NCBI RefSeq assembly: GCF_019097595.1
Contig: NC_080717.1
Coordinates: 965,001-1,029,000 of the forward strand
Source of the DNA: Hemibagrus wyckioides
Taxonomy: Eukaryota; Chordata; Actinopteri; Siluriformes; Bagridae
Direction of reading: 5' to 3'
DNA: 64,000 bases
In this document: piece after piece, positions 1 through 62,013 of the stretch
Numbering within the stretch: position 1 is the first letter of the stretch
Layout of the letters: each line of letters opens with the position of its first letter
Position numbers and translations under genes: made by a program
The notes under the pieces: generated by a model
Told to the model about the DNA's origin: nothing
Seen by the model: the letters and a program-made list of their open reading frames with translations, nothing else
The model's database searches: none

Positions 1-125
1 TGAAGAGAGAGAATAAAGAGAGACTGCTGAGGGGACGAGTGTTTATAGCTGAAGAGAGAGAGAATAAAGAGAGACTGCTGAGGGGACGAGTGTTTATAGC
101 TGAAGAGAGAGAATAAAGAGAGACT
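1..125 (-). repeat. Minisatellite, about 2.5 units, inverted relative to the 4.1-8.4 kb array
   Basis: The unit (GAGAGAATAAAGAGAGACTG core followed by CTGAGGGGACGAGTGTTTAT) is the reverse complement of the unit that fills 4.1-8.4 kb. The array probably continues to the left of the window. Two arrays of one family in opposite orientation about 4 kb apart suggest an inversion or an independent seeding. Confidence 0.9.
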
Positions 126-324
126 GATGGTTGTATATAAATTAAACTATAAACAGATAAAAAGTATAATTTTGTTTTATAATTAATAAAAATGTATAAT
201 TGTTTGTAAATCTCTGTAAAGCAACATAAATATTTTTTGTATTGTTATGTATTATATATCTGTATAATAATATGTACACCCTGGGCAGGTGGAGAGGTTA
301 TGTTTTCAGGTGGTCTGTCTCTCG

Positions 325-9163: not shown

Positions 9164-9246
9164 GAAACAGAACCTGATTTTAATCATTGTGCCGTGTGCA
9201 TCGAGGGATACCAGCTGAACGACGTGGTCCGCATCTTACCCTGCAA
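9164..9246 (+). CDS. rnf130: RNF130 exon: first half of the RING-H2 finger
   Basis: The acceptor TTTTTCCAG precedes codons [20 protein letters not shown], then VVRILPC plus two bases. The donor is AA|GTAAGT. It supplies the first three zinc-ligand cysteines and the RING is split between PCK and HVFH. The donor is followed directly by (GT)n and (GA)n tracts. Confidence 0.95.
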
Positions 9247-12200: not shown

Positions 12201-15200
12201 GGGTCTGGTGAGTGTGTGGGTCAGGTGAGTGTGTGGGTCTGGTGAGTGTTTAGGTCTGGTGAGTGTGTGGGTCTGGTGAGTGTGTGGGTCAGGTGAGTGT
12301 GTGGGTCAGGTGAGTGTGTGGGTCAGGTGAGAGTGTGGGTCAGGTGAGAGTGTGGGTCAGGTGAGAGTGTGGGTCAGGTGAGTGTGTGGGTCTGGTGAGT
12401 GTTTAGGTCTGGTGAGTGTGTGGGTCAGGTGAGTGTGTGGGTCTGGTGAGTGTGTGGGTCAGGTGAGTGTGTGGGTCTGGTGAGTGTGTGGGTCTGATGA
12501 GTGTGTGGGTCAGGTGAGTGTGTGGGTCAGGTGAGTGTGTGGGTCAGGTGAGAGTGTGGGTCAGGTGAGAGTGTGGGTCAGGTGAGAGTGTGGGTCAGGT
12601 GAGTGTGTGGGTCTGGTGAGTGTTTAGGTCTGGTGAGTGTGTGGGTCAGGTGAGTGTGTGGGTCTGGTGAGTGTGTGGGTCAGGTGAGTGTGTGGGTCAG
12701 GTGAGTGTTTAGGTCAGGTGAGTGTGTGGGTCTGGTGAGAGTGTGGGTCTGGTGAGAGTGTGGGTCTGGTGAGTGTGTGGGTCAGGTGAGTGTGTGGGTC
12801 TGGTGAGTGTGTGGGTCTGGTGAGTGTGTGGGTCAGGTGAGTGTTTAGGTCAGGTGAGTGTGTGGGTCAGGTGAGTGTGTGGGTCTGGTGAGTGTGTGGG
12901 TCAGGTGAGTGTTTAGGTCAGGTGAGTGTGTGGGTCAGGTGAGTGTGTGGGTCTGGTGAGTGTGTGGGTCAGGTGAGTGTGTGGGTCTGGTGAGTGTGTG
13001 GGTCTGGTGAGTGTTTAGGTCAGGTTAGTGTGTGGGTCTGGTGAGTGTTTAGGTCAGGTGAGTGTGTGGGTCAGGTGAGTGTTTAGGTCAGGTGAGTGTG
13101 TGGGTCTGGTGAGTGTGTGGGTCAGGTGAGTGTGTGGGTCTGGTGAGTGTGTGGGTCAGGTGAGTGTGTGGGTCAGGTGAGTGTGTGGGTCAGGTGAGAG
13201 TGTGGGTCAGGTGAGAGTGTGGGTCTGGTGAGTGTTTAGGTCTGGTGAGTGTGTGGGTCTGGTGAGTGTGTGGGTCAGGTGAGTGTGTGGGTCTGGTGAG
13301 TGTGTGGGTCAGGTGAGTGTGTGGGTCAGGTGAGAGTGTGGGTCAGGTGAGAGTGTGGGTCTGGTGAGTGTTTAGGTCTGGTGAGTGTGTGGGTCTGGTG
13401 AGTGTGTGGGTCTGGTGAGTGTTTAGGTCTGGTGAGTGTTTAGGTCTGGTGAGTGTGTGGGTCTGATGAGTGTGTGGGTCAGGTGAGTGTGTGGGTCAGG
13501 TGAGTGTGTGGGTCAGGTGAGTGTGTGGGTCAGGTGAGAGTGTGGGTCAGGTGAGAGTGTGGGTCAGGTGAGTGTGTGGGTCTGGTGAGTGTTTAGGTCT
13601 GGTGAGTGTGTGGGTCTGGTGAGTGTGTGGGTCTGGTGAGTGTGTGGGTCAGGTGAGTGTGTGGGTCAGGTGAGTGTGTGGGTCAGGTGAGTGTGTGGGT
13701 CTGGTGAGTGTGTGGGTCAGGTGAGTGTGTGGGTCAGGTGAGTGTGTGGATCTGGTGAGTGTGTGGGTCAGGTGAGTGTGTGGGTCAGGTGAGTGTGTGG
13801 GTCAGGTGAGTGTGTGGGTCAGGTGAGTGTGTGGGTCTGGTGAGTGTGTGGGTCAGGTGAGTGTGTGGGTCAGGTGAGTGTGTGGGTCAGGTGAGTGTGT
13901 GGGTCTGGTGAGTGTGTGGGTCAGGTGAGAGTGTGGGTCAGGTGAGTGTGTGGGTCTGGTGAGAGTGTGGGTCAGGTGAGAGTGTGGGTCTGGTGAGTGT
14001 GTGGGTCTGGTGAGTGTTTAGGTCAGGTTAGTGTGTGGGTCTGGTGAGTGTTTAGGTCAGGTGAGTGTGTGGGTCTGGTGAGTGTTTAGGTCAGGTGAGT
14101 GTGTGGGTCTGGTGAGAGTGTGGGTCTGGTGAGAGTGTGGGTCAGGTGAGAGTGTGGGTCTGGTGAGTGTGTGGGTCTGGTGAGTGTTTAGGTCAGGTTA
14201 GTGTGTGGGTCTGGTGAGTGTTTAGGTCAGGTGAGTGTGTGGGTCAGGTGAGTGTTTAGGTCAGGTGAGTGTGTGGGTCTGGTGAGTGTGTGGGTCTGGT
14301 GAGTGTGTGGGTCTGGTGAGTGTGTGGGTCAGGTGAGTGTGTGGGTCTGGTGAGTGTGTGGGTCAGGTGAGAGTGTGGGTCAGGTGAGTGTGTGGGTCTG
14401 GTGAGAGTGTGGGTCAGGTGAGAGTGTGGGTCTGGTGAGTGTGTGGGTCTGGTGAGTGTTTAGGTCAGGTTAGTGTGTGGGTCTGGTGAGTGTTTAGGTC
14501 AGGTGAGTGTGTGGGTCTGGTGAGTGTTTAGGTCAGGTGAGTGTGTGGGTCTGGTGAGAGTGTGGGTCTGGTGAGAGTGTGGGTCAGGTGAGAGTGTGGG
14601 TCTGGTGAGTGTGTGGGTCTGGTGAGTGTTTAGGTCAGGTTAGTGTGTGGGTCTGGTGAGTGTTTAGGTCAGGTGAGTGTGTGGGTCAGGTGAGTGTTTA
14701 GGTCAGGTGAGTGTGTGGGTCTGGTGAGTGTGTGGGTCTGGTGAGTGTGTGGGTCAGGTGAGTGTGTGGGTCAGGTGAGTGTGTGGGTCAGGTGAGTGTG
14801 TGGGTCAGGTGAGAGTGTGGGTCTGGTGAGTGTGTGGGTCTGGTGAGTGTGTGGGTCTGGTGAGTGTGTGGGTCTGGTGAGTGTGTGGGTCTGGTGAGAG
14901 TGTGGGTCTGGTGAGTGTGTGGGTCTGGTGAGTGTGTGGGTCAGGTGAGTGTGTGGGTCAGGTGAGTGTGTGGGTCAGGTGAGAGTGTGGGTCTGGTGAG
15001 TGTGTGGGTCAGGTGAGTGTGTGGGTCTGGTGAGTGTGTGGGTCAGGTGAGTGTGTGGGTCTGGTGAGTGTGTGGGTCAGGTGAGTGTGTGGGTCAGGTG
15101 AGTGTGTGGGTCTGGTGAGTGTGTGGGTCAGGTGAGTGTGTGGGTCTGGTGAGTGTGTGGGTCTGGTGAGTGTTTAGGTCAGGTGAGTGTGTGGGTCTGG

Positions 15201-17675
15201 TGAGTGTTTAGGTCAGGTGAGTGTGTGGGTCTGGTGAGTGTTTAGGTCAGGTGAGTGTGTGGGTCTGGTGAGTGTGTGGGTCAGGTGAGTGTGTGGGTCT
15301 GGTGAGTGTGTGGGTCTGGTGAGTGTGTGGGTCTGGTGAGAGTGTGGGTCTGGTGAGTGTGTGGGTCTGGTGAGTGTTTAGGTCAGGTGAGTGTGTGGGT
15401 CTGGTGAGTGTGTGGGTCTGGTGAGTGTGTGGGTCAGGTGAGTGTGTGGGTCTGGTGAGTGTGTGGGTCAGGTGAGAGTGTGGGTCTGGTGAGTGTGTGG
15501 GTCTGGTGAGTGTGTGGGTCTGGTGAGTGTGTGGGTCAGGTGAGTGTGTGGGACTGTGGGGATTTAAACTCATCCTCCTGAGAGCTCTGAATATTACAAA
15601 CACATCGCACCTGCAGTGAAGAAGATTCCTGTTCCTGCTGAAATCTTTATTTACACCTGAGTGAAGGTAGTGCAGGAGAAGGTTCAGAGTGAAGGTAGAG
15701 CAGGAGAAGGTTCAGAGTGAAGGTAGAGCAGGAGAAGGTTCAGAGTGAAGGTAGAGCAGGAGAAGGTTCAGAGTGAAGGTAGAGCAGGAGAAGGTTCAGA
15801 GTGAAGGTAGAGCAGGAGAAGGTTCAGAGTGAAGGTAGAGCAGGAGAAGGTTCAGAGTGAAGGTAGAGCAGGAGAAGGTTCAGAGTGAAGGTAGAGCAGG
15901 AGAAGGTTCAGAGTGAAGGTAGAGCAGGAGAAGGTTCAGAGTGAAGGTAGAGCAGGAGAAGGTTCAGAGTGAAGGTAGAGCAGGAGAAGGTTCAGAGTGA
16001 AGGTAGAGCAGGAGAAGGTTCAGAGTAGAATAGTTACAGGTACAGGACTTCTGATCTAGGAAACGTATCTGGAAATCACACAGCTGGGTGGACGTTTATA
16101 GTGCTGTACACACTCCTGACTCTAATACTCTACACACTCCTGACTCTAATACTCTACACATTCCTGACTCTAATACTCTACACATTCCTGACTCTAATAC
16201 TCTACACATTCCTGACTCTAATACTCTACACATTCCTGACTCTAATACTCTACACACACCTGACTCTAATACTCTACACACTCCTGACTCTAATACTCTA
16301 CACATTCCTGACTCTAATACTCTACACATTCCTGACTCTAATACTCTACACACACCTGACTCTAATACTCTACACATTCCTGACTCTAATACTCTACACA
16401 TTCCTGACTCTAATACTCTACACATTCCTGACTCTAATATTCTACACATTCCTGACTCTAATACTCTACACACACCTGACTCTAATACTCTACACATTCC
16501 TGACTCTAATACTCTACACATTCCTGACTCTAATACTCTACACATTCCTGACTCTAATACTCTACACATTCCTGACTCTAATACTCTACACACACCTGAC
16601 TCTAATACTCTACACATTCCTGACTCTAATACTCTACACATTCCTGACTCTAATACTCTACACATTCCTGACTCTAATACTCTACACACACCTCAGTCTA
16701 ATACTCTACACACACCTGACTCTAATACTCTACACATTCCTGACTCAAATACTCTACACATTCCTGACTCTAATACTCTACACACACCTCAGTCTAATAC
16801 TCTACACACTCCTGCCTCTAATACTGTACACACACCTCAGTCTAATACTCTACACACACCAGACTCTAATACTCTACACATGCCTGACTCTAATACTCTA
16901 TACACACCTGACTCAGATACTCTACACACACCAGACTCTAATACTCTACACATGCCTGACTCTAATACTCTATACACACCTGACTCAGATACTCTACACA
17001 CACCTGACTCTAATACTCTATACACACCTGACTCAGATACTCTACACACACCTGACTCTAATACTCTATACACACCTGACTCAGATACTCTACACACACC
17101 TGACTCTAATACTCTACACACACCTGATTCTAATATTCTTCACACTCCTGACTCTAATACTCTACACACACCTGACTTTAATACTCTCTGATTGCTCTGA
17201 TCATTATCATAAGTGTCTGTTGTAGGGGGCGTGGTCAGGTTTGAGCACATCTGTAGTGTGTACCTGTACCTGTGCAGTAACACAAACACGTCCTACTCCG
17301 CCACGCCCTTTTACTCCTCCTCTAAATTTTATAATGCTGTATTTGAAATGTTTGAAGAAAAGATAAACAAGTGAGTGCTTTTCGGATTAAAAACCAAGCC
17401 CCGCCCACTCAGACATGTAATTTGAATAAAATTAATATACAGCATTCTCATTTAGATTCTGATCTATGTTTCATGATATCTGTGAGAATCGAATTCTTAC
17501 TTTCTTACATTTAGATTTAAAATATAGATTTGTGAGACGTCTTTATTTTTCCTTTATTGTTTTTCCACTTCTCCTCCTCAGTGCTTCAGTGATCAATAGG
17601 CCAGAGCTGAGCTAATGCACATCACTTAACCCAGTCAGAGCCATTCAATTTACGTTCTTCTGTGATCCACTTTAT

Positions 17676-18022: not shown

Positions 18023-20150
18023 TGTGTGTGTTCTCTAAACACACTCATTACTAATTCATGCCTCTCTCATCATTTGCTTCACCAAGGAAAATAAATGACC
18101 AGTTTTTCTCATTGGATCACATTAACTCTTGGCTCTGAAGCTTCACTGCAGCAAAACATAAATCTGTAGCAGGAGGAAAACATTAACAGATTGTCAAGAT
18201 CACTTTATACAGCGAGGTTTACAGGAGGAGGAGCTTATAGAGCTCAGGAGGATGAGCTTATAGGTCTCAGAAGGAGGAGCTTGTAGACCTCAGGAGGAGG
18301 GGCTTATAGATCTCAGGATCTCAGGAGTAGGAGCTCATAGATCTCAGGAGTAGGAGCTCATAGATCTCAGGATGAGGAGCTTATATCTCTCAGGATCTCA
18401 GGGGGAGGAGCTTGTAGATCTTAAGATCTCAGGAGGAAGAGCTTATAGATTTCAGGACCTCAGGAGGAGGAGCTTATAGATCATATATAGATTATAGTTG
18501 TAGAATTTAACTGTTTTAAAGTGAGAATGTGAGAATGTTCTGATTTTTTGTGTAGAATATGAAAATCCGTGGAATAAAATAAAACCATGCATGTGTCAGT
18601 CGTAGAGCTCTGGAGCTGTCAGGCTTCACACCTGCAGATCTCTAAACTGACAGCCGGTTCTTCGGGAGTGAACGTCATCTCTCAGTCATGCTTCTGTAAA
18701 CCTGAAGGAGAACGGAGCGTGGAGCTTTAATGTTCCTCAGCTTGCTGTGGAGACACTGAGATGTTCCTGTGATTTGTCACATACACAATCGCACACAGAA
18801 AAACACAGTGACACACTCTTCACCACTGAGATGAACAATAGAGCTTTAATAGAGAACACTAATGTAATAGAACATTTAGTGAAAATCTGGTGTGAGGTTT
18901 TGTTTCCGTGATGTTCAGGAGTTCTTTACCTGGTCAGTGTTAACTAATCCACTCACACTGGAATCCTCAGCGTCTGCAGCTGTAATTAGCACTGCAGTCC
19001 TGTGTGAAGAGACGGTGCAGTAATGGAGTGCAGAATGTGGTGTTAGTGTGGGTCATGAGGAGAGGCCTGCTGCTAGAACATCAGAGATCCAGTTGCGTAT
19101 GGAATTACACAGAGCCGAGTGCCAGAGTGGGATAATCCGATTAAAGCGGAGCTGCAGTCTACAAATAATATTCCTGCAGAAGGGTTTCTGTTGTCTAAGT
19201 GTTCAAGATCTCAGGAGGAGGAGCTAGTGGATCTATAGATATCAGGAGGAGGAGGAGCTTATGGATCTCAGGATGTCAGGAGGACAAGCTTGTAAACCTC
19301 CAGATGTCAGGAGGAGGAGCTTGTAGAGCTCTAGATATATGGAGGAGGAGATTATAGAGTTCAGAATGTCTAGAGGAGGAGCTTGTAGAACTCCAGATGT
19401 CAGGAGGAGGAGCTTATAGAGCTCTAGATTATATAGAGGAGGAGCTTATAGATCTCAGGATGTCTAGGGGAGGACCTTATAGAATTCCAGATGTAAGGGG
19501 GAGGAGCTTATAGAGCTCTAGATGTAAGGAGGAGGAGCTTATAGAGCTCTAGGTATAAGGAGGAGGAGCTTATAGAGCTCAAGATGTAAGGGGGAGTTTA
19601 TAAATCTCAGGATGCCTAGAGGAGGAGCAGCTAGTAGATCTGTAGATCTCAGGAGGAGGAGGTTGTAAATCTGTAGATCTCAGGAGGAGGAGCTTGTAGA
19701 TCTTAGGAGGAGGAGCTTGTAGATCTTAGGAGGAGGAGCTTATAGATCTGTAGATCTCAGGAGGAGGACCTTGTAGATCTGAAGATCTCAGGAGGAGGAG
19801 CTTGTAGATCTGTAGATTTCAGGAGGAGGAGCTTGTAGATCTGTAGATCTCAGGAGGAGGAGCTTGTAGATCTGTATATCTCAGGAGGAGGAGCTTGTAG
19901 ATCCTTAGATCTCAGGGGGGGGGCTTGTAGATCTGTAGATCTCAGGAGGAGGAGCTTGTAGATCCTTAGATCTCAGGAGGAGGAGCTTGTAGATCTGTAG
20001 ATCTCAGAAGCACGGCAGTGATCGAATGTTTTTGTCTTTTCTGTTCTTCAGACATGTTTTCCATAAGATGTGTGTGGATCCGTGGCTGAACGAACACTGC
20101 ACCTGTCCCATGTGTAAACTCAACATCCTCAAAGCTCTGGGCATCATGGT

Positions 20151-33560: not shown

Positions 33561-33761
33561 ATGCAGCACACGCAATTCTACACGTTTACCGCCTTCCTCT
33601 CGTACAGTTTCCTGATGTTTAAAGTGACACACGGAGCTTTAAGGGATTTCCCTGAGGAGCTTCTCCACACCACAGGAGAGATGTCCGGTGTGTTAAAGCC
33701 GCGGTTTAATCAGAGCTCTCACACTGAGGCAGATTATTTACAGACCTGGATTAATCTACAA
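33561..33761 (+). CDS. ctso: CTSO exon 1: signal peptide and start of propeptide
   Basis: ATG opens [20 protein letters not shown], a signal-like hydrophobic stretch, and runs 67 codons to the donor CAA|GTATGT. This is the first Met in frame after non-coding sequence, so it is the likely start. Confidence 0.9.
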
Positions 33762-33830
33762 GTATGTGTGAACACAAACACTCTGACTCCTTTATTCACA
33801 CCGAATTCACTCCGAGATAAGTATATGTGA

Positions 33831-33861
<31 letters not shown>

Positions 33862-36800
33862 CCTTTATTTACACCGAATAGATCTTCACTCAGAGATAAG
33901 AGCCTTCAGGTTGTCTGTCACGAGCTCTTGTTCTTCACTTCATGGTGTTTATGAATGATTCATATTTTATTACTGCAGATTATTTTATGTGTTAATCCAT
34001 ATCTTTTAATAAGCTTTTATTATCTATTTGGTTTATACACCAATCACGCATAACATTATGACCACCTGCCTAATATTGTGTTGGTCCCTTTTGCTGCCAG
34101 AACAGCCCTGACCCGTCCTGCACTGTGTATTCTGACCCCTTTCTATCAGAACCAGCATTAACTTCTTCAGCAGTTTGATCAACAGTAGCTCGTCTGTTGG
34201 ATCGGATCACACGGGCCAGCCTTCACTCCCCACGTGCATCAATGAGCCTTGACCGCCCATGACCCTGTCACCGGTTCACCACTGTTCCTTCCTTGGACCA
34301 CTTTTGATAGATACTGACCACTGCAGACCGGGAACACCCCACAAGAGCTGCAGTTTTGGAGATGTTCTGATCCAGTGGTCTAGCCATCACAATTTGGTCC
34401 TTTTGGTCAAACTCGCTCAAATCCTTACACTTGTCCATTTTTCCTGCTTCTAACATCAACTTTGAGGACAAAATGTTCACTTGCTGCCTAATATATCCCA
34501 CCCACTAACAGGGGCCATGATGAGGAGATACTCAGTCTTATTCACTTCACCTGGAGCTGGTCATAATGTTATGCCTGATCAGTGTATAGTGTGTTCCAGA
34601 AATACTACTGCTACTAATAATCATAATAATAATGAAAAAAGTAGGAAGGTTTTTCTGTGTTGTATTTAAATCTCTCTTATTCTGAGAGATTGATATATTT
34701 CCTGATTTTTCCGTAAATCAGGACTCGATAAAGCGCCAGATTTTTCTCAATTCACACCGGAAGGATTTGAGGCACTCGGCTGTGTACGGAGTCAATCAGT
34801 TCTCCATCCTCTCCTCTCAGCAGTTTAAAGGTGATGTAAAAAATCTACTTTTTCAGCACTTAATCACTTCCAGACTGGTTTAGATGTGAGAGAGGAGTTT
34901 AAATCTGTGAATTTCATCATAATTAATTAGTTAAATTAAGTTGTCTTTATTTATCACATATACATTACTGCACAGGGAAATTCTTTCTTCACATATCCCA
35001 TCCTTGGAGGTTGGGGTCAGAGTGCAGGGTCAGCCATGATGCAGTGCCTCTGGAGCAGGGTGGGTTAAGGGCCTTGCTTAAGGGCCCAACAGTGGCAGCT
35101 TGGCAGTGCTGATGGTTCTGATGAATGACTCAGAGCCATAACCACTTGAGCCACCACTGGTAATAACTTTTCACTGATGTTTGTTTGTTTGTTTTTCCAG
35201 ATCTGTATCTCCGAGCTCGTCGAGAAAAAGTGCCCAGGTATAAACCTTCACAACACGGACACTTCGGGACATCACCTTATCCTCGGAAGTTCGACTGGAG
35301 GGATCGTAGAGCAGTCGGTCCTGTCCACGATCAGAGATCGGTAAGCGTGTCCAAACAGGAAGTGATGTCTAGTATTGTCAGTGTGCAGGGTGAATGACTT
35401 GGAGTGTTTATTGTGTGTGTGTGTGTGTTGAGGGCAGTGTGGAGGATGCTGGGCGTTCAGCGTGGTCTCTGCAGTCGAGTCGGTGCGAGTGAAAGATGGA
35501 GGGACGTTTCAGGAGCTCAGCGTCCAGCAGGTTGTAGACTGTGCATATAAAAGTCAGGGATGTGACGGAGGGTCACCTGTCAGTACGCTGGCCTGGCTGA
35601 AACAGGTACTGTCACCAGATGGTGCAAAAGTATTGCCGCCACCCCCCCCCCCCTTTTAATAACAGAGATTTTTACTGAATTTAGTCATATCTGGTCATAA
35701 ACACAAAAATCGAAACTTTATATTTGGTCAGAGACATCAGATAACTTCCTCTCAATGCAATTAATAATGACTGTGTCCAGTTTGTTTTATTTAAATATTA
35801 TTGGAGGATGGCAGTAATTTTGGCAGAGGAAATGAGAGGAATATGATTATTTAGTTTCATTATCCGTCTCAGTGAAAGTGTGTTTAAAGGGGGATTATAA
35901 TCATTTTATATTGTATGGAGAAATAATCACAACGTTTATAAAAAATCTTTTTCTGCAACACTTAGGTCACTTTTAAAAAATAAAACCTAGGCAGTAAAAA
36001 GAGTGTATTAATAACGAATCAATAAAATTAATTAATAAATTAATTGTGTTAAAAATGTATTTATTCAAACTGAGGTTTTATCTGCTGCTTCAGTTACCAG
36101 ATATATTTTTTCATGATTTATTTTTTTGTTGTTTTTTCTTTCAATGTTCTCGTGGTCAGAGTGGGGAGAAGCTGGTGAACGAGACGGAGTATCCGTACGA
36201 AGAGAAGACCGGAGTGTGTCGTGTTTTCCCTCGGGGTCACGGTGGCGTGGCGGTGAAGGACTATGCCGCCTTCGACTTCAGGTACAGAGTGAAGAGAAGA
36301 AAGAAGACAGTTTTTACAGGGTTCTTTGCAGGAAGAAGATTTTACAGGGTTCTAAAACTCTGTCCTGAAATCGTGCTTCATTTTTACACAATATTTATAT
36401 TTTCAGTTGTTTTATAACCTGTTCATTGCTGCAGTGTCCAGTAGGGGGCGATAGTGTGATGTCAGCAGTGCAGGTGAAATATCGCCAAGAGTTAATACTG
36501 TAACTGTCACATTAATCATCACAGAGGAATCCAGATCAGGCATGAAACAACTAAAGTAACATTAGGTCCAAATTAACCATAAATAATCAATAATACTTCT
36601 TAAAAATATTAATTAGATTTGGTGTAAAAATATTTTCTCCATGTTGTTTTATATTTATTGCACTCAGATTCAGAGACACTCATGCGTCTTGGATATAGAG
36701 CAGCACATGAACCAGGTCACATGACCAGGAAGTCGTCTGTGATTGGGTGTATCCCAAATCAGTTTATTGTATAGTAGCACAGGTTTATATGAACAAACTT

Positions 36801-38069
36801 GCTCTAATGTTATCATTTGTATAGTAACAGCTGATTCACAGGGACGTGTGTGTGTGTGTGTAGTGGACAGGAGGAGGAGATGAGCCGGAGGTTAGTGGAC
36901 TGGGGGCCATTGGTGGTGATAGTGGATGCAATGAGCTGGCAGGATTATCAGGGAGGAATTATTCAACACCACTGTTCTGCTGAACACGCTAATCACGCTG
37001 TGATTATCACCGGCTACGACACTACAGGTAACACACACACACACACACTGTACTGATACTACAGGTAACACACACACTGTACTGATACTACAGGTAACAC
37101 ACACACACACTGTACTGATACTACAGGTAACACACACACACACTGTACTGATACTACAGGTAACACACACACACACTGTACTGATACTACAGGTAACACA
37201 CACACACTGTACTGATACTACAGGTAACACACACACACTGTACTGATACTACAGGTAACACACACACACACACTGTACTGATACTACAGGTAACACACAC
37301 ACACACTGTACTGATACTACAGGTAACACACACACACACACACTGTACTGATACTACAGGTAACACACACACACACACACTGTACTGATACTACAGGTAA
37401 CACACACACACACTGTACTGATACTACAGGTAATACACACACACTGTACTGATACTACAGGTAACACACACACACTGTACTGATACTACAGGTAACACAC
37501 ACACACACACACACTGTACTGATACTACAGGTAACACACACACACACACACTGTACTGATACTACAGGTAACACACACACACACACACTGTACTGATACT
37601 ACAGGTAACACACACACACACACTGTACTGATACTACAGGTAACACACACACACACACTGTACTGATACTACAGGTAACACACACACACACACACACACA
37701 CTGTACTGATACTACAGGTAACACACACACACACTGTACTGATACTACAGGTAACACACACACACACACTGTACTGATACTACAGGTAACACACACACAC
37801 ACACACTGTACTGATACTACAGGTAACACACACACACACTGTACTGATACTACAGGTAACACACACACACACACACTGTACTGATACTACAGGTAACACA
37901 CACACACACACTGTACTGATACTACAGGTAACACACACACACACTGTACTGATACTACAGGTAACACACACACACACACACTGTACTGATACTACAGGTA
38001 ACACACACACACACTGTACTGATACTACAGGTAACACACACACACACACACACTGTACTGATACTACAG

Positions 38070-38100
<31 letters not shown>

Positions 38101-39235
38101 TGTACTGATACTACAGGTAACACACACACACACTGTACTGATACTACAGGTAACACACACACACACACACACTGTACTGATACTACAGGTAACACACACA
38201 CACACACACTGTACTGATACTACAGGTAACACACACACACACACACTGTACTGATACTACAGGTAACACACACACACACACACTGTACTGATACTACAGG
38301 TAACACACACACACACACACACTGTACTGATACTACAGGTAACACACACACACACACACTGTACTGATACTACAGGTAACACACACACACACACACTGTA
38401 CTGATACTACAGGTAATACACACACACACACACACTGTACTGATACTACAGGTAACACACACACACACACACACTGTACTGGTGCTACAGGTAACACACA
38501 CACACACACACACTGTACTGATACTACAGGTAACACACACACACACACACACACTGTACTGATACTACAGGTAACACACACACACACACACTGTACTGAT
38601 GCTACAGGTAACACACACACACTGTAGTGATACTACAGGTAACACACACACACACACACTGTACTGATACTACAGGTAACACACACACACACTGTACTGA
38701 TACTACAGGTAACACACACACACACACACTGTACTGATGCTACAGGTAACACACACACACTGTAGTGATACTACAGGTAACACACACACACACACACACT
38801 GTACTGATACTACAGGTAACACACACACACACACACTGTACTGATACTACAGGTAACACACACACACACTGTACTGATACTACAGGTAACACACACACAC
38901 ACACACACACTGTACTGATACTACAGGTAACACACACACACACACTGTACTGATACTACAGGTAACACACACACACACACTGTACTGATACTACAGGTAA
39001 CACACACACACACTGTACTGATACTACAGGTAACACACACACACACTGTACTGATGCTACAGGTAACACACACACACACTGTACTGATGCTACAGGTAAC
39101 ACACACACACACACTGTACTGATACTACAGGTAACACACACACACACACACACTGTACTGATACTACAGGTAACACACACACACACTGTACTGATACTAC
39201 AGGTAACACACACACACACTGTACTGATACTACAG

Positions 39236-39266
<31 letters not shown>

Positions 39267-42200
39267 TGTACTGATACTACAGGTAACACACACACACACT
39301 GTACTGATGCTACAGGTAACACACACACTGTACTGATGCTACAGGTAACACACACACACACACACTGTACTGATACTACAGGTAACACACACACTGTACT
39401 GATGCTACAGGTAACACACACACACACACTGTACTGATACTACAGGTAACACACACACACACTGTACTGATGCTACAGGTAACACACACACACACACTGT
39501 ACTGATACTACAGGTAACACACACACACACACACTGTACTGATACTACAGGTAACACACACACTGTACTGATGCTACAGGTAACACACACACACACACTG
39601 TACTGATACTACAGGTAACACACACACAAACACACTGTACTGATACTACAGGTAACACACACACACTGTACTGATACTACAGGTAACACACACACTGTAC
39701 TGATGCTACAGGTAACACACACACACAAACTGTACTGATACTACAGGTAACACACACACACACTGTACTGATGCTACAGGTAACACACACACTGTACTGA
39801 TGCTACAGGTAACACACACACACTGTACTGATACTACAGGTAACACACACACACACTGTACTGATACTACAGGTAACACACACACTGTACTGATGCTACA
39901 GGTAACACACACACACAAACTGTACTGATACTACAGGTAACACACACACACACTGTACTGATGCTACAGGTAACACACACACTGTACTGATGCTACAGGT
40001 AACACACACACACACACACACTGTACTGATACTACAGGTAACACACACACTGTACTGATGCTACAGGTAACACACACACACACACTGTACTGATACTACA
40101 GGTAACACACACACACTGTACTGATGCTACAGGTAACACACACACACACACACACTGTACTGATACTACAGGTAACACACACACTGTACTGATGCTACAG
40201 GTAACACACACACACACTGTACTGATACTACAGGTAACACACACACACACACACTGTACTGATACTACAGGTAACACACACACACACACACACTGTACTG
40301 ATACTACAGGTAACACACACACACACACACACTGTACTGATACTACAGGTAACACACACACACACACACTGTACTGATACTACAGGTAACACACACACTG
40401 TACTGATGCTACAGGTAACACACACACACAAACTGTACTGATGCTACAGGTAACACACACACTGTACTGATGCTACAGGTAACACACACACACACTGTAC
40501 TGATACTACAGGTAACACACACACACACACACTGTACTGATACTACAGGTAACACACACACACTGTACTGATACTACAGGTAACACACACACACTGTACT
40601 GATACTACAGGTAATATACACACACACACACACACACACACTGTACTGATACTACAGGTAACACACACACACACTGTACTGATACTACAGGTAACACACA
40701 CACACACACACACTGTACTGATACTACAGGTAACACACACACACACACACTGTACTGATACTACAGGTAACACACACACACACTGTACTGATACTACAGG
40801 TAACACACACACACTGTACTGATACTACAGGTAACACACACACACTGTACTGATACTACAGGTAACACACACACACACACACACTGTACTGATACTACAG
40901 GTAACACACACACACAAACACACTGTACTGATACTACAGGTAACACACACACAAACACACTGTACTGATACTACAGGTAACACACACACACACACACACT
41001 GTACTGATACTACAGGTAACACACACACACACTGTACTGATACTACAGGTAACACACACACACTGTACTGATACTACAGGTAACACACACACACTGTACT
41101 GATACTACAGGTAACACACACACACACACACACTGTACTGATACTACAGGTAACACACACACACACTGTACTGATACTACAGGTAACACACACACACACA
41201 CTGTACTGATACTACAGGTAACACACACACACACACACACTGTACTGATACTACAGGTAACACACACACACACACACACACACTGTACTGATACTACAGG
41301 TAACACACACACACACACTGTACTGATACTACAGGTAACACACACACACACACACACTGTACTGATACTACAGGTAACACACACACACACACACACTGTA
41401 CTGATACTACAGGTAACACACACACACACTGTACTGATACTACAGGTAACACACACACACACTGTACTGATACTACAGGTAACACACACACACACTGTAC
41501 TGATACTACAGGTAACACACACACACACACACTGTACTGATACTACAGGTAACACACACACACACTGTACTGATACTACAGGTAACACACACACACACAC
41601 TGTACTGATACTACAGGTAACACACACACACACACACACTGTACTGATACTACAGGTAATACACACACACACACACACTGTACTGATACTACAGGTAACA
41701 CACACACACACACACTGTACTGATACTACAGGTAACACACACACACACACACTGTACTGATACTACAGGTAATACACACACACACACACTGTACTGATAC
41801 TACAGGTAACACACACACACACTGTACTGATACTACAGGTAACACACACACACACACTGTACTGATACTACAGGTAACACACACACACACACTGTACTGA
41901 TACTACAGGTAACACACACACACACACACTGTACTGATACTACAGGTAACACACACACACACACACTGTACTGATACTACAGGTAACACACACACACACA
42001 CACTGTACTGATACTACAGGTAACACACACACACACACTGTACTGATACTACAGGTAACACACACACACACTGTACTGATACTACAGGTAACACACACAC
42101 ACACACTGTACTGATACTACAGGTAACACACACACACACACACTGTACTGATACTACAGGTAATACACACACACACACACTGTACTGATACTACAGGTAA

Positions 42201-45200
42201 TACACACACACACACACACACTGTACTGATACTACAGGTAACACACACACACACTGTACTGATACTACAGGTAACACACACACACACACTGTACTGATAC
42301 TACAGGTAACACACACACACACACTGTACTGATACTACAGGTAATACACACACACACACTGTACTGATACTACAGGTAACACACACACACACACTGTACT
42401 GATATAAACACACACACACACTGTACTGATACTACAGGTAACACACACACACACTGTACTGATACTACAGGTAACACACACACACACTGTACTGATACTA
42501 CAGGTAACACACACACACACACTGTACTGATACTACAGGTAACACACACACACACACTGTACTGATACTACAGGTAACACACACACACACTGTACTGATA
42601 CTACAGGTAACACACACACACACTGTACTGATACTACAGGTAATACACACACACACACTGTACTGATACTACAGGTAACACACACACTGTACTGATACTA
42701 CAGGTAACACACACACACACTGTACTGATACTACAGGTAACACACACACACTGTACTGATACTACAGGTAACACACACACACACTGTACTGATACTACAG
42801 GTAACACACACACACACACACTGTACTGATACTACAGGTAACACACACACACACTGTACTGATACTACAGGTAACACACACACACACACACTGTACTGAT
42901 ACTACAGGTAACACACACACACACACTGTACTGATACTACAGGTAACACACACACACACTGTACTGATACTACAGGTAACACACACACACACTGTACTGA
43001 TACTACAGGTAACACACACACACACACTGTACTGATACTACAGGTAACACACACACACACTGTACTGATACTACAGGTAACACACACACACTGTACTGAT
43101 ACTACAGGTAACACACACACACACACTGTACTGATACTACAGGTAACACACACACACACTGTACTGATACTACAGGTAACACACACACACACACACTGTA
43201 CTGATACTACAGGTAACACACACACACACTGTACTGATACTACAGGTAACACACACACACACTGTACTGATACTACAGGTAACACACACACACACTGTAC
43301 TGATACTACAGGTAACACACACACACACTGTACTGATACTACAGGTAACACACACACACACTGTACTGATACTACAGGTAACACACACACACTGTACTGA
43401 TACTACAGGTAACACACACACACACACACTGTACTGATACTACAGGTAACACACACACACTGTACTGATACTACAGGTAACACACACACTCTACTGATAC
43501 TACAGGTAACACACACACACACACACTGTACTGATACTACAGGTAACACACACACACACACACTGTACTGATACTACAGGTAACACACACACACTGTACT
43601 GATACTACAGGTAACACACACACACACACACTGTACTGATACTACAGGTAACACACACACACACACACTGTACTGATACTACAGGTAACACACACACACA
43701 CACACACTGTACTGATACTACAGGTAACACACACACACACACTGTACTGATACTACAGGTAACACACACACACACTGTACTGATACTACAGGTAACACAC
43801 ACACACACACACTGTACTGATACTACAGGTAACACACACACACACACTGTACTGATACTACAGGTAACACACACACACACTGTACTGATACTACAGGTAA
43901 CACACACACACACACTGTACTGATACTACAGGTAACACACACACTGTACTGATACTACAGGTAACACACACACACACACACTGTACTGATACTACAGGTA
44001 ACACACACACACTGTACTGATACTACAGGTAACACACACACACACTGTACTGATACTACAGGTAACACACACACACACTGTACTGATACTACAGGTAACA
44101 CACACACACACACACTGTACTGATACTACAGGTAACACACACACACACTGTACTGATACTACAGGTAACACACACACACACACACACACTGTACTGATAC
44201 TACAGGTAACACACACACACTGTACTGATACTACAGGTAACACACACACACACACACTGTACTGATACTACAGGTAACACACACACACACTGTACTGATA
44301 CTACAGGTAACACACACACACACTGTACTGATACTACAGGTAACACACACACACACACTGTACTGATACTACAGGTAACACACACACACACTGTACTGAT
44401 ACTACAGGTAACACACACACACACTGTACTGATACTACAGGTAACACACACACACACTGTACTGATACTACAGGTAACACACACACACACACACACTGTA
44501 CTGATACTACAGGTAACACACACACACACACTGTACTGATACTACAGGTAACACACACACACACACACACTGTACTGATACTACAGGTAACACACACACA
44601 CACTGTACTGATACTACAGGTAACACACACACACACTGTACTGATACTACAGGTAACACACACACACACACACACTGTACTGATACTACAGGTAACACAC
44701 ACACACACACACACTGTACTGATACTACAGGTAACACACACACACACTGTACTGATACTACAGGTAACACACACACACACACACACTGTACTGATACTAC
44801 AGGTAACACACACACACTGTACTGATACTACAGGTAACACACACACACACACACTGTACTGATACTACAGGTAACACACACACACACTGTACTGATACTA
44901 CAGGTAACACACACACACTGTACTGATACTACAGGTAACACACACACACACACACTGTACTGATACTACAGGTAACACACACACACTGTACTGATACTAC
45001 AGGTAACACACACACACACACACACTGTACTGATACTACAGGTAACACACACACACACACACTGTACTGATACTACAGGTAACACACACACACACACACA
45101 CTGTACTGATACTACAGGTAACACACACACACACTGTACTGATACTACAGGTAACACACACACACACACACTGTACTGATACTACAGGTAACACACACAC

Positions 45201-48200
45201 ACTGTACTGATACTACAGGTAACACACACACACACACTGTACTGATACTACAGGTAACACACACACACACACACTGTACTGATACTACAGGTAACACACA
45301 CACACACTGTACTGATGCTACAGGTAACACACACACACACTGTACTGATGCTACAGGTAACACACACACACACACTGTACTGATACTACAGGTAACACAC
45401 ACACACACACACACTGTACTGATACTACAGGTAACACACACACACACTGTACTGATGCTACAGGTAACACACACTGTACTGATACTACAGGTAACACACA
45501 CACACACTGTACTGATACTACAGGTAACACACACACACACACACTGTACTGATACTACAGGTAACACACACACACAAACTGTACTGATACTACAGGTAAC
45601 ACACACTGTACTGATGCTACAGGTAACACACACACTGTACTGATGCTACAGGTAACACACACACACACACACACACTGTACTGATACTACAGGTAACACA
45701 CAAACTGTACTGATGCTACAGGTAACACACACACACACTGTACTGATACTACAGGTAACACACACACACACACTGTACTGATACTACAGGTAACACACAC
45801 ACACACTGTACTGATACTACAGGTAACACACACACACACTGTACTGATACTACAGGTAACACACACACACTGTACTGATACTACAGGTAACACACACACA
45901 CTGTACTGATACTACAGGTAACACACACACACACACTGTACTGATACTACAGGTAACACACACACACACTGTACTGATACTACAGGTAACACACACACAC
46001 ACACACTGTACTGATACTACAGGTAACACACACACACACACTGTACTGATACTACAGGTAACACACACACACACTGTACTGATACTACAGGTAACACACA
46101 CACACTGTACTGATACTACAGGTAACACACACACACTGTACTGATACTACAGGTAACACACACACACACACACACACTGTACTGATACTACAGGTAACAC
46201 ACACACACACACACTGTACTGATACTACAGGTAACACACACACACACACACTGTACTGATACTACAGGTAACACACACACACACTGTACTGATACTACAG
46301 GTAACACACACACACACACTGTACTGATACTACAGGTAACACACACACACACACACTGTACTGATACTACAGGTAACACACACACACTGTACTGATACTA
46401 CAGGTAACACACACACACACACTGTACTGATACTACAGGTAACACACACACACTGTACTGATACTACAGGTAACACACACACACACACTGTACTGATACT
46501 ACAGGTAACACACACACACACTGTACTGATACTACAGGTAACACACACACACACTGTACTGATACTACAGGTAACACACACACACACTGTACTGATACTA
46601 CAGGTAACACACACACACACTGTACTGATACTACAGGTAACACACACACACACACACACTGTACTGATACTACAGGTAACACACACACACACTGTACTGA
46701 TACTACAGGTAACACACACACACACACACTGTACTGATACTACAGGTAACACACACACACACACACTGTACTGATACTACAGGTAACACACACACACACA
46801 CACTGTACTGATACTACAGGTAACACACACACACACTGTACTGATACTACAGGTAACACACACACACACACACTGTACTGATACTACAGGTAACACACAC
46901 ACACACACACTGTACTGATACTACAGGTAACACACACACACACTGTACTGATACTACAGGTAACACACACACACACACACTGTACTGATACTACAGGTAA
47001 CACACACACACACACACACACACTGTACTGATACTACAGGTAACACACACACACACTGTACTGATACTACAGGTAACACACACACACACTGTACTGATAC
47101 TACAGGTAACACACACACACTGTACTGATACTACAGGTAACACACACACACACTGTACTGATACTACAGGTAACACACACACACACACACTGTACTGATA
47201 CTACAGGTAACACACACACACACTGTACTGATACTACAGGTAACACACACACACACTGTACTGATACTACAGGTAACACACACACACACACTGTACTGAT
47301 ACTACAGGTAACACACACACACACACACACTGTACTGATACTACAGGTAACACACACACACACTGTACTGATACTACAGGTAACACACACACACACTGTA
47401 CTGATACTACAGGTAACACACACACACACTGTACTGATACTACAGGTAACACACACACACACACACTGTACTGATACTACAGGTAACACACACACACACA
47501 CACACTGTACTGATACTACAGGTAACACACACACACACTGTACTGATACTACAGGTAACACACACACACACTGTACTGATACTACAGGTAACACACACAC
47601 ACACTGTACTGATACTACAGGTAACACACACACACACACACACTGTACTGATACTACAGGTAACACACACACACACACACTGTACTGATACTACAGGTAA
47701 CACACACACTGTACTGATACTACAGGTAACACACACACACACACTGTACTGATACTACAGGTAACACACACACACACACACACTGTACTGATACTACAGG
47801 TAACACACACACACACTGTACTGATACTACAGGTAACACACACACACACTGTACTGATACTACAGGTAACACACACACACACACTGTACTGATACTACAG
47901 GTAACACACACACACACACACTGTACTGATACTACAGGTAACACACACACACTGTACTGATACTACAGGTAACACACACACACACACTGTACTGATACTA
48001 CAGGTAACACACACACACACACACTGTACTGATACTACAGGTAACACACACACACTGTACTGATACTACAGGTAACACACACACACACTGTACTGATACT
48101 ACAGGTAACACACACACACACACACTGTACTGATACTACAGGTAACACACACACACACTGTACTGATACTACAGGTAACACACACACACACTGTACTGAT

Positions 48201-49725
48201 ACTACAGGTAACACACACACACACTGTACTGATACTACAGGTAACACACACACACACACACTGTACTGATACTACAGGTAACACACACACACACTGTACT
48301 GATACTACAGGTAACACACACACACACTGTACTGATACTACAGGTAACACACACACACACTGTACTGATACTACAGGTAACACACACACACACACTGTAC
48401 TGATACTACAGGTAACACACACACACACTGTACTGATACTACAGGTAACACACACACACACACACACACACACTGTACTGATACTACAGGTAACACACAC
48501 ACACACTGTACTGATACTACAGGTAACACACACACACACACACTGTACTGATACTACAGGTAACACACACACACACACACTGTACTGATACTACAGGTAA
48601 CACACACACACACTGTACTGATACTACAGGTAACACACACACACACACACACACTGTACTGATACTACAGGTAATACACACACACACTGTACTGATACTA
48701 CAGGTAACACACACACACACACTGTACTGATACTACAGGTAACACACACACACACTGTACTGATACTACAGGTAACACACACACACACTGTACTGATACT
48801 ACAGGTAACACACACACACACACTGTACTGATACTACAGGTAACACACACACACACTGTACTGATACTACAGGTAACACACACACACTGTACTGATACTA
48901 CAGGTAACACACACACACTGTACTGATACTACAGGTAACACACACACACACACTGTACTGATACTACAGGTAACACACACACACACACACACTGTACTGA
49001 TACTACAGGTAACACACACACTGTACTGATACTACAGGTAACACACACACACACTGTACTGATACTACAGGTAACACACACACACTGTACTGATACTACA
49101 GGTAAGTATGTGAAGTCTACTGGAGCTTTTTAGATCTTCAATAAATACTAAATAAAACGTAAATAAACGTGTGTTTGTGTGTGGGAGTGTGTGTGTGTGT
49201 GTGGTCAGTTAATAGATTGTGGTGTATAATAGTGTGTATTTTGTAGGTGAGGTGCCGTTTTGGATAGTGCGTAATTCCTGGGGGACGGCGTGGGGTGATG
49301 AGGGATACGCCTACATTAAAATGGGGGAGAACATCTGCGGTGAGTAAACAACACTGACTGTAGTATCTAATGTTGATCCTTTTAATGAAGTGTTATGTGT
49401 AAATAAATATAATCCACACATTTATAAACACAAAGAATAAATAATGATATCTTTAGTGTTAGATGACATTCTGAATGATATTTTTCTTTTTTATCATTTT
49501 TTTCCATTTGAAGGCGAACCATGACATGTCTCTCTTTATCTTTAACTCGACCACTAACGCTGTCTCAGCCGTTTAATGTCCAGTATACACTAATGTCCAG
49601 TAGTACGCGGTCACTAAGGGAATGTGATTTAAACCTGGGGTCATGTCCTTGATCTGTTTCCTGTGTGTGCTCCTCCTCTTCCTCCTCCAGGCGTGGCTGA
49701 CAGCGTGGCTGCGGTGTTTCTCTGA
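33561..49725 (+). CDS. ctso: Cathepsin O, complete eight-exon gene
   Basis: A papain-family (C1A) lysosomal cysteine protease. Exons 33561-33761, 34722-34830, 35201-35340, 35438-35605, 36160-36281, 36864-37027, 49247-49339 and 49691-49725 join in phase into 343 residues; I recall about 321 for human. Order: hydrophobic signal peptide (residues about 1-25); propeptide; mature start near FDWRD; catalytic Cys in [15 protein letters not shown]; catalytic His in [10 protein letters not shown]; catalytic Asn in IVRNSWG; end [10 protein letters not shown]. The blocks [15 protein letters not shown] and GGIIQHHCS are cathepsin O-specific to my knowledge. It is tail to tail with TDO2, which I recall also being so in human. 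Intron 6 is 12.2 kb, nearly all a tandem array derived from the exon 6 end. All three catalytic residues are intact, so the gene looks functional. Confidence 0.96.
34038..34584 (-). mobile_element. Internally deleted Tc1/mariner-type transposon with TA target duplication
   Basis: Terminal inverted repeats of about 27 bp (core GCATAACATTATGACCA at the left, its complement at the right) are flanked by TA on both sides. On the minus strand 34501-34268 encodes the N-terminal DNA-binding helix-turn-helix of a Tc1-like transposase ([20 protein letters not shown]). The catalytic DDE part is absent, so the copy is non-autonomous. It lies in CTSO intron 1. Confidence 0.85.
34722..34830 (+). CDS. ctso: CTSO exon 2: propeptide
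   Basis: Acceptor AAATCAG; reads [20 protein letters not shown] then [16 protein letters not shown]; donor AAAG|GTGATG. The YGVNQFS motif is the propeptide ERFNAQ/GNFD-type region typical of C1A proteases. Confidence 0.92.
34938..35162 (-). mobile_element. tRNA-derived SINE, minus orientation, in CTSO intron 2
   Basis: Minus strand: GGTGGCTCAAGTGGTTATGG (box A region), then CCACTGTTGGGCCCTTAAGC, ending in an A/T-rich AAATAAAGACAACTT tail. It is the same family as the copy at 56.2 kb, though the box B region is eroded here. Confidence 0.8.
35201..35340 (+). CDS. ctso: CTSO exon 3: propeptide end and mature N terminus
   Basis: Acceptor GTTTTTCCAG; reads [15 protein letters not shown] through [17 protein letters not shown]; donor TCG|GTAAGC. 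FDWRD marks the start of the mature protease. Confidence 0.93.
35438..35605 (+). CDS. ctso: CTSO exon 4: catalytic cysteine
   Basis: Begins [20 protein letters not shown] with the nucleophile Cys at the second Cys of CGGC. Ends with [20 protein letters not shown]. The acceptor GAGGGCAG is preceded by (GT)n rather than a pyrimidine tract. Donor CAG|GTACTG. Confidence 0.95.
35606..36159 (+). other. CTSO intron 4, AT-rich, no element recognised
   Basis: Poly-C at about 35641-35652. Otherwise unremarkable. Confidence 0.5.
36160..36281 (+). CDS. ctso: CTSO exon 5
   Basis: Reads [20 protein letters not shown] then [24 protein letters not shown] and KDYAAFDF match the cathepsin O central region. 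Donor TTCAG|GTACAG. Confidence 0.92.
36282..36863 (+). other. CTSO intron 5, unique sequence ending in a short GT tract
   Basis: The acceptor is GTGTGTGTGTGTAG, again GT instead of pyrimidines. No element is recognised. Confidence 0.5.
36864..37027 (+). CDS. ctso: CTSO exon 6: catalytic histidine; its 3' end seeds the intron 6 array
   Basis: Reads [20 protein letters not shown] and on to [12 protein letters not shown] with the catalytic His in NHAV. The last bases are TACGACACTACAG|GTAACAC. This donor has C at +5, a weak site. The exon end plus donor is the template of the tandem unit that follows at once. Reading on into the array gives [13 protein letters not shown]. Confidence 0.96.
37028..49101 (+). 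repeat. 12-kb array of splice-donor modules in CTSO intron 6, on the order of 390 units
   Basis: Unit: TACTGATACTACAG then GTAACAC(AC)n then ACTG, about 25-45 bp depending on CA number. TAC-GA-ACTACAG|GTAA copies the end of exon 6 with its donor. Each unit keeps CAG|GTAACA. Variant blocks: GATGCTACAG (concentrated at 38.5-40.5 kb and 45.3-45.7 kb) and GTAATAC (41.6-42.7 kb). One unit (about 42402) has lost the donor. The last unit changes to CAG|GTAAGTATG. Many open frames on both strands ([21 protein letters not shown]) are artefacts. Confidence 0.98.
49099..49109 (+). promoter_or_regulatory. Full-consensus 5' splice site ending the array
   Basis: CAGGTAAGTAT matches the U1 snRNA complement at every position, unlike all array units. 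It is probably the original intron 6 donor context, now 12 kb from its exon. Confidence 0.7.
49169..49204 (+). repeat. GT-rich tract near the 3' end of CTSO intron 6
   Basis: Interrupted GTGTGTTTGTGTGTGGGAGT followed by GTGTGTGTGTGTG, 40-80 bases before the acceptor. It is complementary to the AC tracts of the array. Confidence 0.85.
49247..49339 (+). CDS. ctso: CTSO exon 7: catalytic asparagine
   Basis: Acceptor ATTTTGTAG; reads [20 protein letters not shown] then [11 protein letters not shown]. The Asn of RNSWG completes the triad. Donor G|GTGAGT. Confidence 0.97.
49340..49690 (+). other. CTSO intron 7
   Basis: AT-rich, no element recognised; ends in a good TTCCTCCTCCAG acceptor. Confidence 0.5.
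49691..49725 (+). CDS. ctso: CTSO exon 8: C terminus
   Basis: Completes the Gly codon and reads [14 protein letters not shown], equivalent to the end of mammalian cathepsin O. Confidence 0.92.

Positions 49726-50195: not shown

Positions 50196-62013
<11,818 letters not shown>

What the first reader, a model, noticed from the sequence alone, without database searches (positions are those of the whole stretch)
37015..49109. A 12-kb tandem array of about 390 splice donors grown from the end of a cathepsin O exon
Seen: CTSO exon 6 ends TACGACACTACAG|GTAACAC and the intron consists at once of repeated TACTGATACTACAG|GTAACAC(AC)n units up to 49.1 kb. The unit therefore contains the exon's last codons, the 5' splice site and a CA tract. 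Nearly every unit keeps CAG|GTAAC. Established: only use of a donor that leaves phase 1 right after GYDTT joins correctly to exon 7 ([13 protein letters not shown]). Reading into the array gives a stop within about nine codons, losing the catalytic Asn. Inference: the spliceosome must pick the first of hundreds of near-identical donors, or use the array as a redundant landing zone with variable isoforms. I know of no described case of a donor module amplified to this scale.
Basis: partly seen in the sequence, partly recalled or inferred. Interest (0 to 1): 0.92.

Follow-up and report, generated by a model that had tools for sequence, protein, structure and literature searches.

The report
Fish intron built of splice donors
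In a catfish, the intron after one exon of the cathepsin O gene is a 12,000-letter tandem repeat in which nearly every copy carries the same cut-here signal, so the cell must pick the right one or erase the array stepwise; the repeat itself looks like an ordinary runaway minisatellite, but it would be a clean natural test of how splice sites are chosen.

Summary
The window is from the catfish Hemibagrus wyckioides (protein match plus assembly size). Exon 6 of CTSO (36864-37027) ends CTACAG and is followed at once by 347 tandem units bounded by 348 CAG|GTAA donors, not about 390. The last, a perfect CAG|GTAAGT at 49102, leaves an ordinary-looking 145-nt intron before exon 7. Only the first of 348 donors, used in one step, keeps the catalytic WIVRNSWG block. 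The eight exons joined this way give exactly the annotated 343-aa protein.

Best reading: a minisatellite grown from the donor edge of a short intron. Every unit is AG|GT, so it could act as acceptor and donor, and the two stepwise orders tested on the letters give the same mRNA as one step; use in cells is untested. Motif conservation does not prove selection (P about 0.10). The unit sequence is found only here in the assembly, but donor-rich minisatellites are not rare: a neighbouring intron holds 316 donor-like sites.

Known relatives: the IFI6/6-16 donor minisatellite and AGGT tandem-duplication intron gain. New here: the scale, the exon contact and the perfect distal donor. No RNA reads or related species' DNA were available.

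The parts
36864..37027 (+). CTSO exon 6 (164 nt; ends phase 1 with CTACAG)
   Evidence: eight joined exons equal P0001 letter for letter; splice sites
37028..37033 (+). first donor GTAACA, the only one of 348 that in one step gives an intact enzyme
   Evidence: U1 duplex -8.0 kcal/mol, same as the typical unit
37028..49101 (+). array: 347 units, consensus GTAAC(AC)nTGTACTGATACTACAG, 27-62 nt, mean 34.8
   Evidence: 26-mer probe only here in the assembly
49102..49107 (+). terminal perfect donor CAG|GTAAGT at the far end of the array
   Evidence: U1 duplex -14.0; only strict CAGGTAAGT in the window on either strand and only GT in this intron at -12 or below
49102..49246 (+). residual 145-nt sequence with ordinary intron ends (GTAAGT...TTTTGTAG), inferred original intron 6
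   Evidence: ancestry is inference
49247..49339 (+). CTSO exon 7 (93 nt, phase 1 to phase 1; encodes WIVRNSWG with the catalytic Asn); starts GTGAGG
33561..49725 (+). CTSO coding gene, exons 33561-33761, 34722-34830, 35201-35340, 35438-35605, 36160-36281, 36864-37027, 49247-49339, 49691-49725
   Evidence: translation equals P0001, 'cathepsin O [Hemibagrus wyckioides]'; Pfam Peptidase_C1 E 3.4e-59 for the exon 2-8 part

Best explanation
This is intron 6 of CTSO in the catfish Hemibagrus wyckioides. An originally short intron (the 145 nt from 49102 to 49246) was enlarged about 85-fold when a segment spanning the exon-intron boundary (the last ~10 nt of exon 6, GTAAC and a CA tract) was duplicated in tandem again and again. 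Because each unit ends CAG and begins GTAA, adding or losing whole units leaves the mature mRNA unchanged, which is why growth was tolerated. The array is removed with the intron. Most likely the donor next to the exon is used: donors further in would make ever larger exons (201, 230, 263, 296 nt and so on to 12,238 nt), and the CA tract directly behind the donor may recruit an hnRNP L-type activator. Shown: anatomy, frame, copy number, restriction to this locus in the assembly, identity with the annotated protein. Inferred: ancestry of the 145-nt intron, exon definition, CA-tract help, neutrality.
For: Unit end matches exon end 9 of 10, with 0 of 114 other GTAA sites reaching 7 of 10. Array runs from the exon without a spacer and ends 145 nt before exon 7 in CAG|GTAAGT. 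Joined exons equal the annotated protein P0001 over all 343 residues. First donor's U1 duplex (-8.0) lies within the range of the gene's other donors measured, exons 2, 3, 4, 5, 7 (-7.1 to -11.0). Units with the GATGCT variant are clustered: none of 2000 shuffles was as tight; units departing from the consensus are 3 of 43, 44 of 206 and 1 of 98 along the array, as local duplication would give. In the alignment, 11 of the 12 relatives of P0001 keep G(E/D)VP(F/Y)WI at this junction; the twelfth, P0012, lacks the exon 7 segment. Exon sizes. CA repeats and hnRNP L: title of Hui 2003 in a reference list and one citing passage only.
Against: The first donor is not stronger than its look-alikes and is much weaker than the last one (-8.0 against -14.0). 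When equal donors compete, the one nearest the acceptor is often preferred (recalled), which would favour the harmful last donor. Predicted pairing hardly sets the first donor apart (unpaired probability 0.57 against 0.51-0.53 for the next ten). -8.0 is not rare: 384 of 5,285 GT sites outside the array reach it. The annotated protein may rest on homology rather than on reads. No related species' DNA was available to show a short intron.
Confidence: 0.6

Rival explanations
1. Stepwise or recursive removal. Each unit is an AG|GT ratchet point. The strong last donor is spliced first to exon 7, or exon 6 is first joined to the last unit's AG; the rest of the array is then removed from the first donor to a unit AG. 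Any order that finishes gives the normal mRNA.
For: All 347 units end CAG before GT, by the way units were cut. On the letters both two-step orders tried give exactly the one-step product. 344 of 347 units hold a CTRAY-type branch motif CTGAT, 8 nt before their own AG, so it could serve only the next unit's AG; only 2 of 347 units have an extra AG. Pyrimidine content before the unit AG (0.56; four units looked at) is no lower than before this gene's own acceptors of exons 4, 6, 7 (0.44, 0.50, 0.56). The last donor is the best U1 match in this intron and its 145-nt intron suits intron definition. Recursive splicing occurs over a range of intron sizes in human (PMC10156609, abstract and passages).
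Against: No pyrimidine-rich tract: U content 0.31 before unit AGs against 0.44-0.81 at this gene's seven acceptors measured; acceptors of exons 2, 3, 5 and 8 have pyrimidine 0.63-1.0. Drosophila ratchet points need a cryptic RS-exon with its own donor (PMC8605326, abstract and passages). A single unit is too short for an intron (recalled limit). In human introns under 1,000 nt conventional lariats outnumber recursive ones.
Confidence: 0.22
2. The array is a burden: the perfect distal donor wins, most transcripts keep array sequence, hit the stop at once and are degraded, or skip exon 7, so CTSO output is low in this species.
For: Last donor -14.0 against -8.0. 347 of 348 donors used alone lose the catalytic block. 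Exon 7 skipping is in frame and an annotated Neoarius graeffei isoform lacks exactly this segment (P0012).
Against: A 12-kb exon is unlikely to be recognised as one (recalled). The reading frame of CTSO is intact over all 343 residues, so the gene is not visibly decaying.
Confidence: 0.1
3. Assembly artefact: the true array is much shorter, or its unit number and CA lengths are unreliable.
For: Assembly rests mainly on nanopore reads (74.9 Gb against 6.7 Gb HiFi) polished with short reads; such reads err in CA tracts (recalled). Unit lengths show no neighbour correlation (-0.02).
Against: Seed reads of 32 kb or more can span 12 kb. No repeated block longer than 7 units, within the range of 100 shuffles (mean 5.6, max 8), so no sign of a falsely duplicated stretch. 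Variants form coherent clusters.
Confidence: 0.05
4. An unrelated minisatellite happened to arise or insert exactly at the exon edge; its likeness to the exon end is chance.
For: I saw no source in exon 6 for the rest of the unit (TGTACTG and the CA tract; by eye); two CACACTGATAC copies lie at 9047 and 9075. Donor-like units are common in this window's repeats (316 sites of 8/9 or better in the array 9811-15552).
Against: 9 of 10 match to the exon end directly before GTAA; 0 of 114 control sites reach 7.
Confidence: 0.03

Closest known systems
Minisatellite of the human interferon-induced gene 6-16 / IFI6 (Turri, Cuin and Porter 1995)
   Same: A repeat whose units serve as splice donors: two downstream repeat units used as donors give three mRNA species (one citing passage and the title in reference lists seen; the paper itself is not held).
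   Different: There the extra donors yield mRNAs named as isoforms. Here 347 of 348 donors used alone lose the catalytic block, units carry CA tracts and there are 348 donors over 12 kb. Copy number, unit and exact position of the 6-16 repeat are recalled, not checked.
Intron gain by tandem duplication of an AGGT segment (Rogers 1989; ATP2A1, Hellsten 2011; fission yeast 24-bp multi-duplicates, Zhu and Niu 2013)
   Same: Repeating AG|GT supplies both splice sites, so the mRNA is unchanged; introns across two and four duplicates exist (passages in PMC4974935; the cited papers not seen).
   Different: Here an existing intron seems to have been enlarged instead of a new one made, and the copy number is in the hundreds.
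Recursive splicing / ratchet points (Drosophila Ubx, kuz, Bx; human introns)
   Same: AG|GT juxtaposition that regenerates a donor after splicing (passages).
   Different: No evidence of use here; no pyrimidine-rich tract; hundreds of sites about 35 nt apart.
Internal tandem repeats that modify gene structure at exon-intron boundaries (PMC2812944)
   Same: Minisatellites at boundaries can make new introns (passages).
   Different: Reported repeats average 30-bp units in about 4 copies; the present array has 347.

Membership tests
Minisatellite (tandem repeat of units of roughly 10-100 bp; range recalled) | head-to-tail near-identical units | tested here: met
   TRF 348.3 copies of period 33, 89% matches; 347 units
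Donor-bearing boundary minisatellite (6-16 / IFI6 kind) | array touches an exon end and units contain donors | tested here: met
Donor-bearing boundary minisatellite (6-16 / IFI6 kind) | several units used as donors in mRNA | not testable with these tools
   no reads available; frame makes donors 2-348 harmful if used alone
AGGT tandem-duplication intron | every unit offers AG|GT so the mRNA is unchanged | tested here: met
   all 347 units; product identity for the two stepwise orders tried
AGGT tandem-duplication intron | intron absent before the duplication | tested here: inconclusive
   145-nt intron-like remainder suggests an existing intron; no relatives' DNA
Recursive splicing ratchet point | acceptor and donor dinucleotides juxtaposed | tested here: met
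   CAG|GTAA in all 348
Recursive splicing ratchet point | pyrimidine-rich acceptor | tested here: not met
   pyrimidine 0.56, U 0.31 upstream of the four unit AGs measured
Recursive splicing ratchet point | use in cells (lariats, intermediates) | not testable with these tools
   no RNA data held
Cathepsin O (papain family C1) | Peptidase_C1 domain, intact frame, match to cathepsin O | tested here: met

The most novel reading that the evidence does not exclude
A self-erasing intron: 347 consecutive AG|GT ratchet units let the spliceosome start anywhere, in any order, and always converge on the same mRNA, with the strong terminal donor clearing the short original intron first and the array then removed from the first donor. 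If so, this is the largest ladder of recursive splice sites I know of (from memory), and whole-unit changes in array length would be neutral.
Probability: 0.18. Interest if true: 0.82.

Novelty: new variant of a known kind. Interest (0 to 1): 0.52.

Why it matters
Donor choice is usually studied with a few competing sites (recalled). Here one gene offers 347 near-identical donors in a row (337 identical 9-mers, 10 with one change) plus one perfect donor at the far end, with a frame that makes every wrong one-step choice visible as a stop codon. Reads from one species would show whether position, strength or stepwise removal decides. It also suggests how an intron can grow about 85-fold without changing the mRNA, because the repeat unit carries both splice dinucleotides.

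Tried and rejected
Selection for the donor motif: 5 of 21 core positions vary and none of the 7 in CAGGTAA, but P of that by chance is 0.098 (the 62-nt unit left out); homogenisation explains it, so no claim of selection. Higher-order repeats: longest repeated block 7 units, 100 shuffles mean 5.6, max 8. RNA structure exposing the first donor: 0.57 against 0.51-0.53 (first eleven donors only), too small to use. Donor-unit arrays as a genome-wide habit: three CAGGTAAGT within spacing limits gave 14 matches against 49 for the reversed control (the tool says counts of repeats are lower bounds), so no enrichment. I fetched 6 stretches holding all 14 listed places and read the three frames ahead of the first CAGGTAAGT of each by eye: I identified no exon. 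One, L012, has a 42-codon open frame running into its first unit; it has no Pfam match up to E 0.1 and stays unresolved. Two further genome patterns (donor plus CA; CAGGTGAGT) never got an answer. Another window array as a boundary array: the one at 9811-15552 lies about 560 bp inside an intron of a RING-finger gene, not at the exon edge. One row ('RNF ex a') used a wrong coordinate and is dropped; the exon set was off by one or more bases at several ends, and that script stopped with an error; redone. PDB search gave other papain-family proteases in the 60 rows shown of 176 and was not used. A papers search for recursive splicing with tandem repeats or minisatellites found 7 papers, all with 0 occurrences of 'recursive splicing'. 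Searches for donor-minisatellite terms, repeated-donor phrases (20 of 62 listed) and fish minisatellites (15 of 47 listed) showed me no donor array of this size in titles and abstract starts; the library lacks most subscription journals.
Full report
What it is in. The window is G000:C8:965001-1029000 of a 789.7-Mb assembly. The published H. wyckioides assembly is 789.8 Mb (PMC8546334, parts 1 and 2 of 4 of the text read). The eight CTSO exons joined from the window equal, letter for letter over 343 residues, the protein named 'cathepsin O [Hemibagrus wyckioides]' (P0001). The species label rests on these two agreements.

Anatomy. Exon 6 is 36864-37027, 164 nt, ending phase 1 in CTACAG. The next base starts an unbroken array of 347 units with the consensus GTAAC(AC)nTGTACTGATACTACAG, first GT 37028, last GT 49102, mean 34.8 nt, 32 distinct unit types. 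The 9-mer at the donor is CAGGTAACA 337 times, CAGGTAATA 10 times and CAGGTAAGT once, at the very end. From that last donor 145 nt with ordinary intron ends lead to exon 7 (49247-49339).

Is it more than chance? The last ten bases of the unit match the last ten of the exon at nine positions, directly before GTAA; none of 114 GTAA sites outside the array reaches seven. A 26-base unit probe occurs 305 times in the whole assembly and 305 times in this window, and three shorter probes of the core were not found in the window outside the array.

Consequence of each donor. With one-step splicing to exon 7, only the first of 348 donors keeps WIVRNSWG. Donors 2 to 348 all give the same product, ending [14 protein letters not shown], because the first unit already brings a stop. 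U1 pairing by RNA.duplexfold, which does not force the register, is -8.0 kcal/mol for the first and the typical unit and -14.0 for the last. The gene's other donors measured (exons 2, 3, 4, 5, 7) lie at -7.1 to -11.0. Of 5,285 GT sites outside the array, 384 reach -8.0 and 114 reach -14.0, 113 of the latter in the repeat at 9811-15552; in this intron only 49102 reaches -12 or below. So the useful donor is ordinary and the best donor in the intron is one that, used alone, would ruin the product.

Why the array is nonetheless harmless on paper. Each unit ends CAG and is followed by GT. If exon 6 is joined to the AG of the last unit the junction regenerates CAG|GTAAGT, and the 145-nt intron can follow. 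If the last donor is joined to exon 7 first, the remaining array again starts with the exon 6 donor and ends in an AG directly before exon 7. Both orders give exactly the one-step product. Acceptor quality of the units is doubtful: pyrimidine fraction 0.56, similar to this gene's exon 4, 6 and 7 acceptors (0.44, 0.50, 0.56) but below those of exons 2, 3, 5 and 8 (0.63-1.0), and U only 0.31. A branch-like CTGAT is in 344 of 347 units, 8 nt from the unit's own AG, so it could serve only the next unit's AG about 43 nt away (and inference).

Origin. The most economical history is a short intron whose donor edge was duplicated with a CA tract and kept growing by local duplication. The GATGCT variant units are tightly clustered (0 of 2000 shuffles as tight), and units departing from the consensus are concentrated in the middle (44 of 206, against 3 of 43 and 1 of 98 at the two ends; boundaries chosen after seeing the data). 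Unit length is uncorrelated between neighbours, from fast slippage or nanopore error. That the 145-nt remainder is the ancestral intron is inference; no relative's DNA was available. The zero variation in CAGGTAA among 21 core positions has a chance probability of about 0.10 and is not evidence of selection.

How special is it? Donor-like minisatellites are not rare here. In a 10.8-kb intron of the neighbouring RING-finger gene an array at 9811-15552 has 316 sense sites matching MAG|GTRAGT at 8 or 9 of 9, closer to consensus than the CTSO units, but it does not touch an exon. Genome-wide, three strict CAGGTAAGT in tandem occur 14 times, fewer than the reversed control pattern (49). In the six stretches holding those 14 places I identified no exon running into the repeat, by eye and only ahead of the first CAGGTAAGT; one 42-codon open frame (L012) without a Pfam match is unresolved. 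The CTSO array stands out by contact with the exon and by number, not by carrying donors.

Mechanism. I commit to intron removal with the first donor chosen by exon definition as most likely (0.6): later donors make exons of 201, 230, 263, 296 nt up to 12,238 nt (the exon-size limit is recalled), perhaps helped by the CA tract, since GT/CA repeats are reported to regulate nearby splice sites (title of Hui 2003 and one citing passage seen). Stepwise removal is next (0.22), a burden on CTSO output third (0.1). The annotated protein fits the first two and cannot separate them.

Relation to known systems. The 6-16/IFI6 minisatellite (title and one citing passage), AGGT tandem duplication including multi-copy fission-yeast cases (passages), boundary minisatellites in human paralogs (passages) and ratchet points (passages) cover the principles. 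What my searches of the held library did not show (listings, partly capped) is an array of hundreds of AG|GT units in contact with an exon and capped by a perfect donor.

Assembly. The array was built mainly from nanopore reads with a 32-kb seed cut-off, with 6.7 Gb HiFi added. Length is credible, exact CA counts less so. Nothing in the unit order suggests false duplication.

Noticed in passing
window 9811-15552: 169-copy, 34-bp array (GTGAGTGTGTGGGTCAG type) in the intron of a RING-finger gene (exons near 9164-9246 and 20052-20148) with 316 sense donor-like sites of 8/9 or better, 113 of them 9/9 to MAG|GTRAGT.
   Followed up: partly
window 49247: Exon 7 starts GTGAGG, so the spliced exon 6|7 junction reads CAG|GTGAGG, itself a donor-like sequence (U1 duplex -11.6), as in recursively spliced exons; skipping exon 7 is in frame.
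   Followed up: partly
P0012 (Neoarius graeffei cathepsin O isoform X2): This annotated isoform lacks exactly the exon 7 segment, including the catalytic Asn region.
   Followed up: no
window 1-126 and 4099-8444: What looks like the same 51-bp minisatellite lies in opposite orientations at the two places (by eye).
   Followed up: no
window 52099-53323: Short AG|GT-type repeats such as CCCCTCCAGGTGAGTACAATTACC, with both a pyrimidine stretch and a donor match, interrupted by about 700 bp of other sequence.
   Followed up: no
window 54513-57085, minus strand: Long open stretches resembling retrotransposon reverse transcriptase and endonuclease fragments (by eye).
   Followed up: no
L012 1438-1563: A 42-codon open frame runs into a 3.6-copy, 36-bp repeat whose unit carries CCCCAGGTAAG; no Pfam match.
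   Followed up: partly
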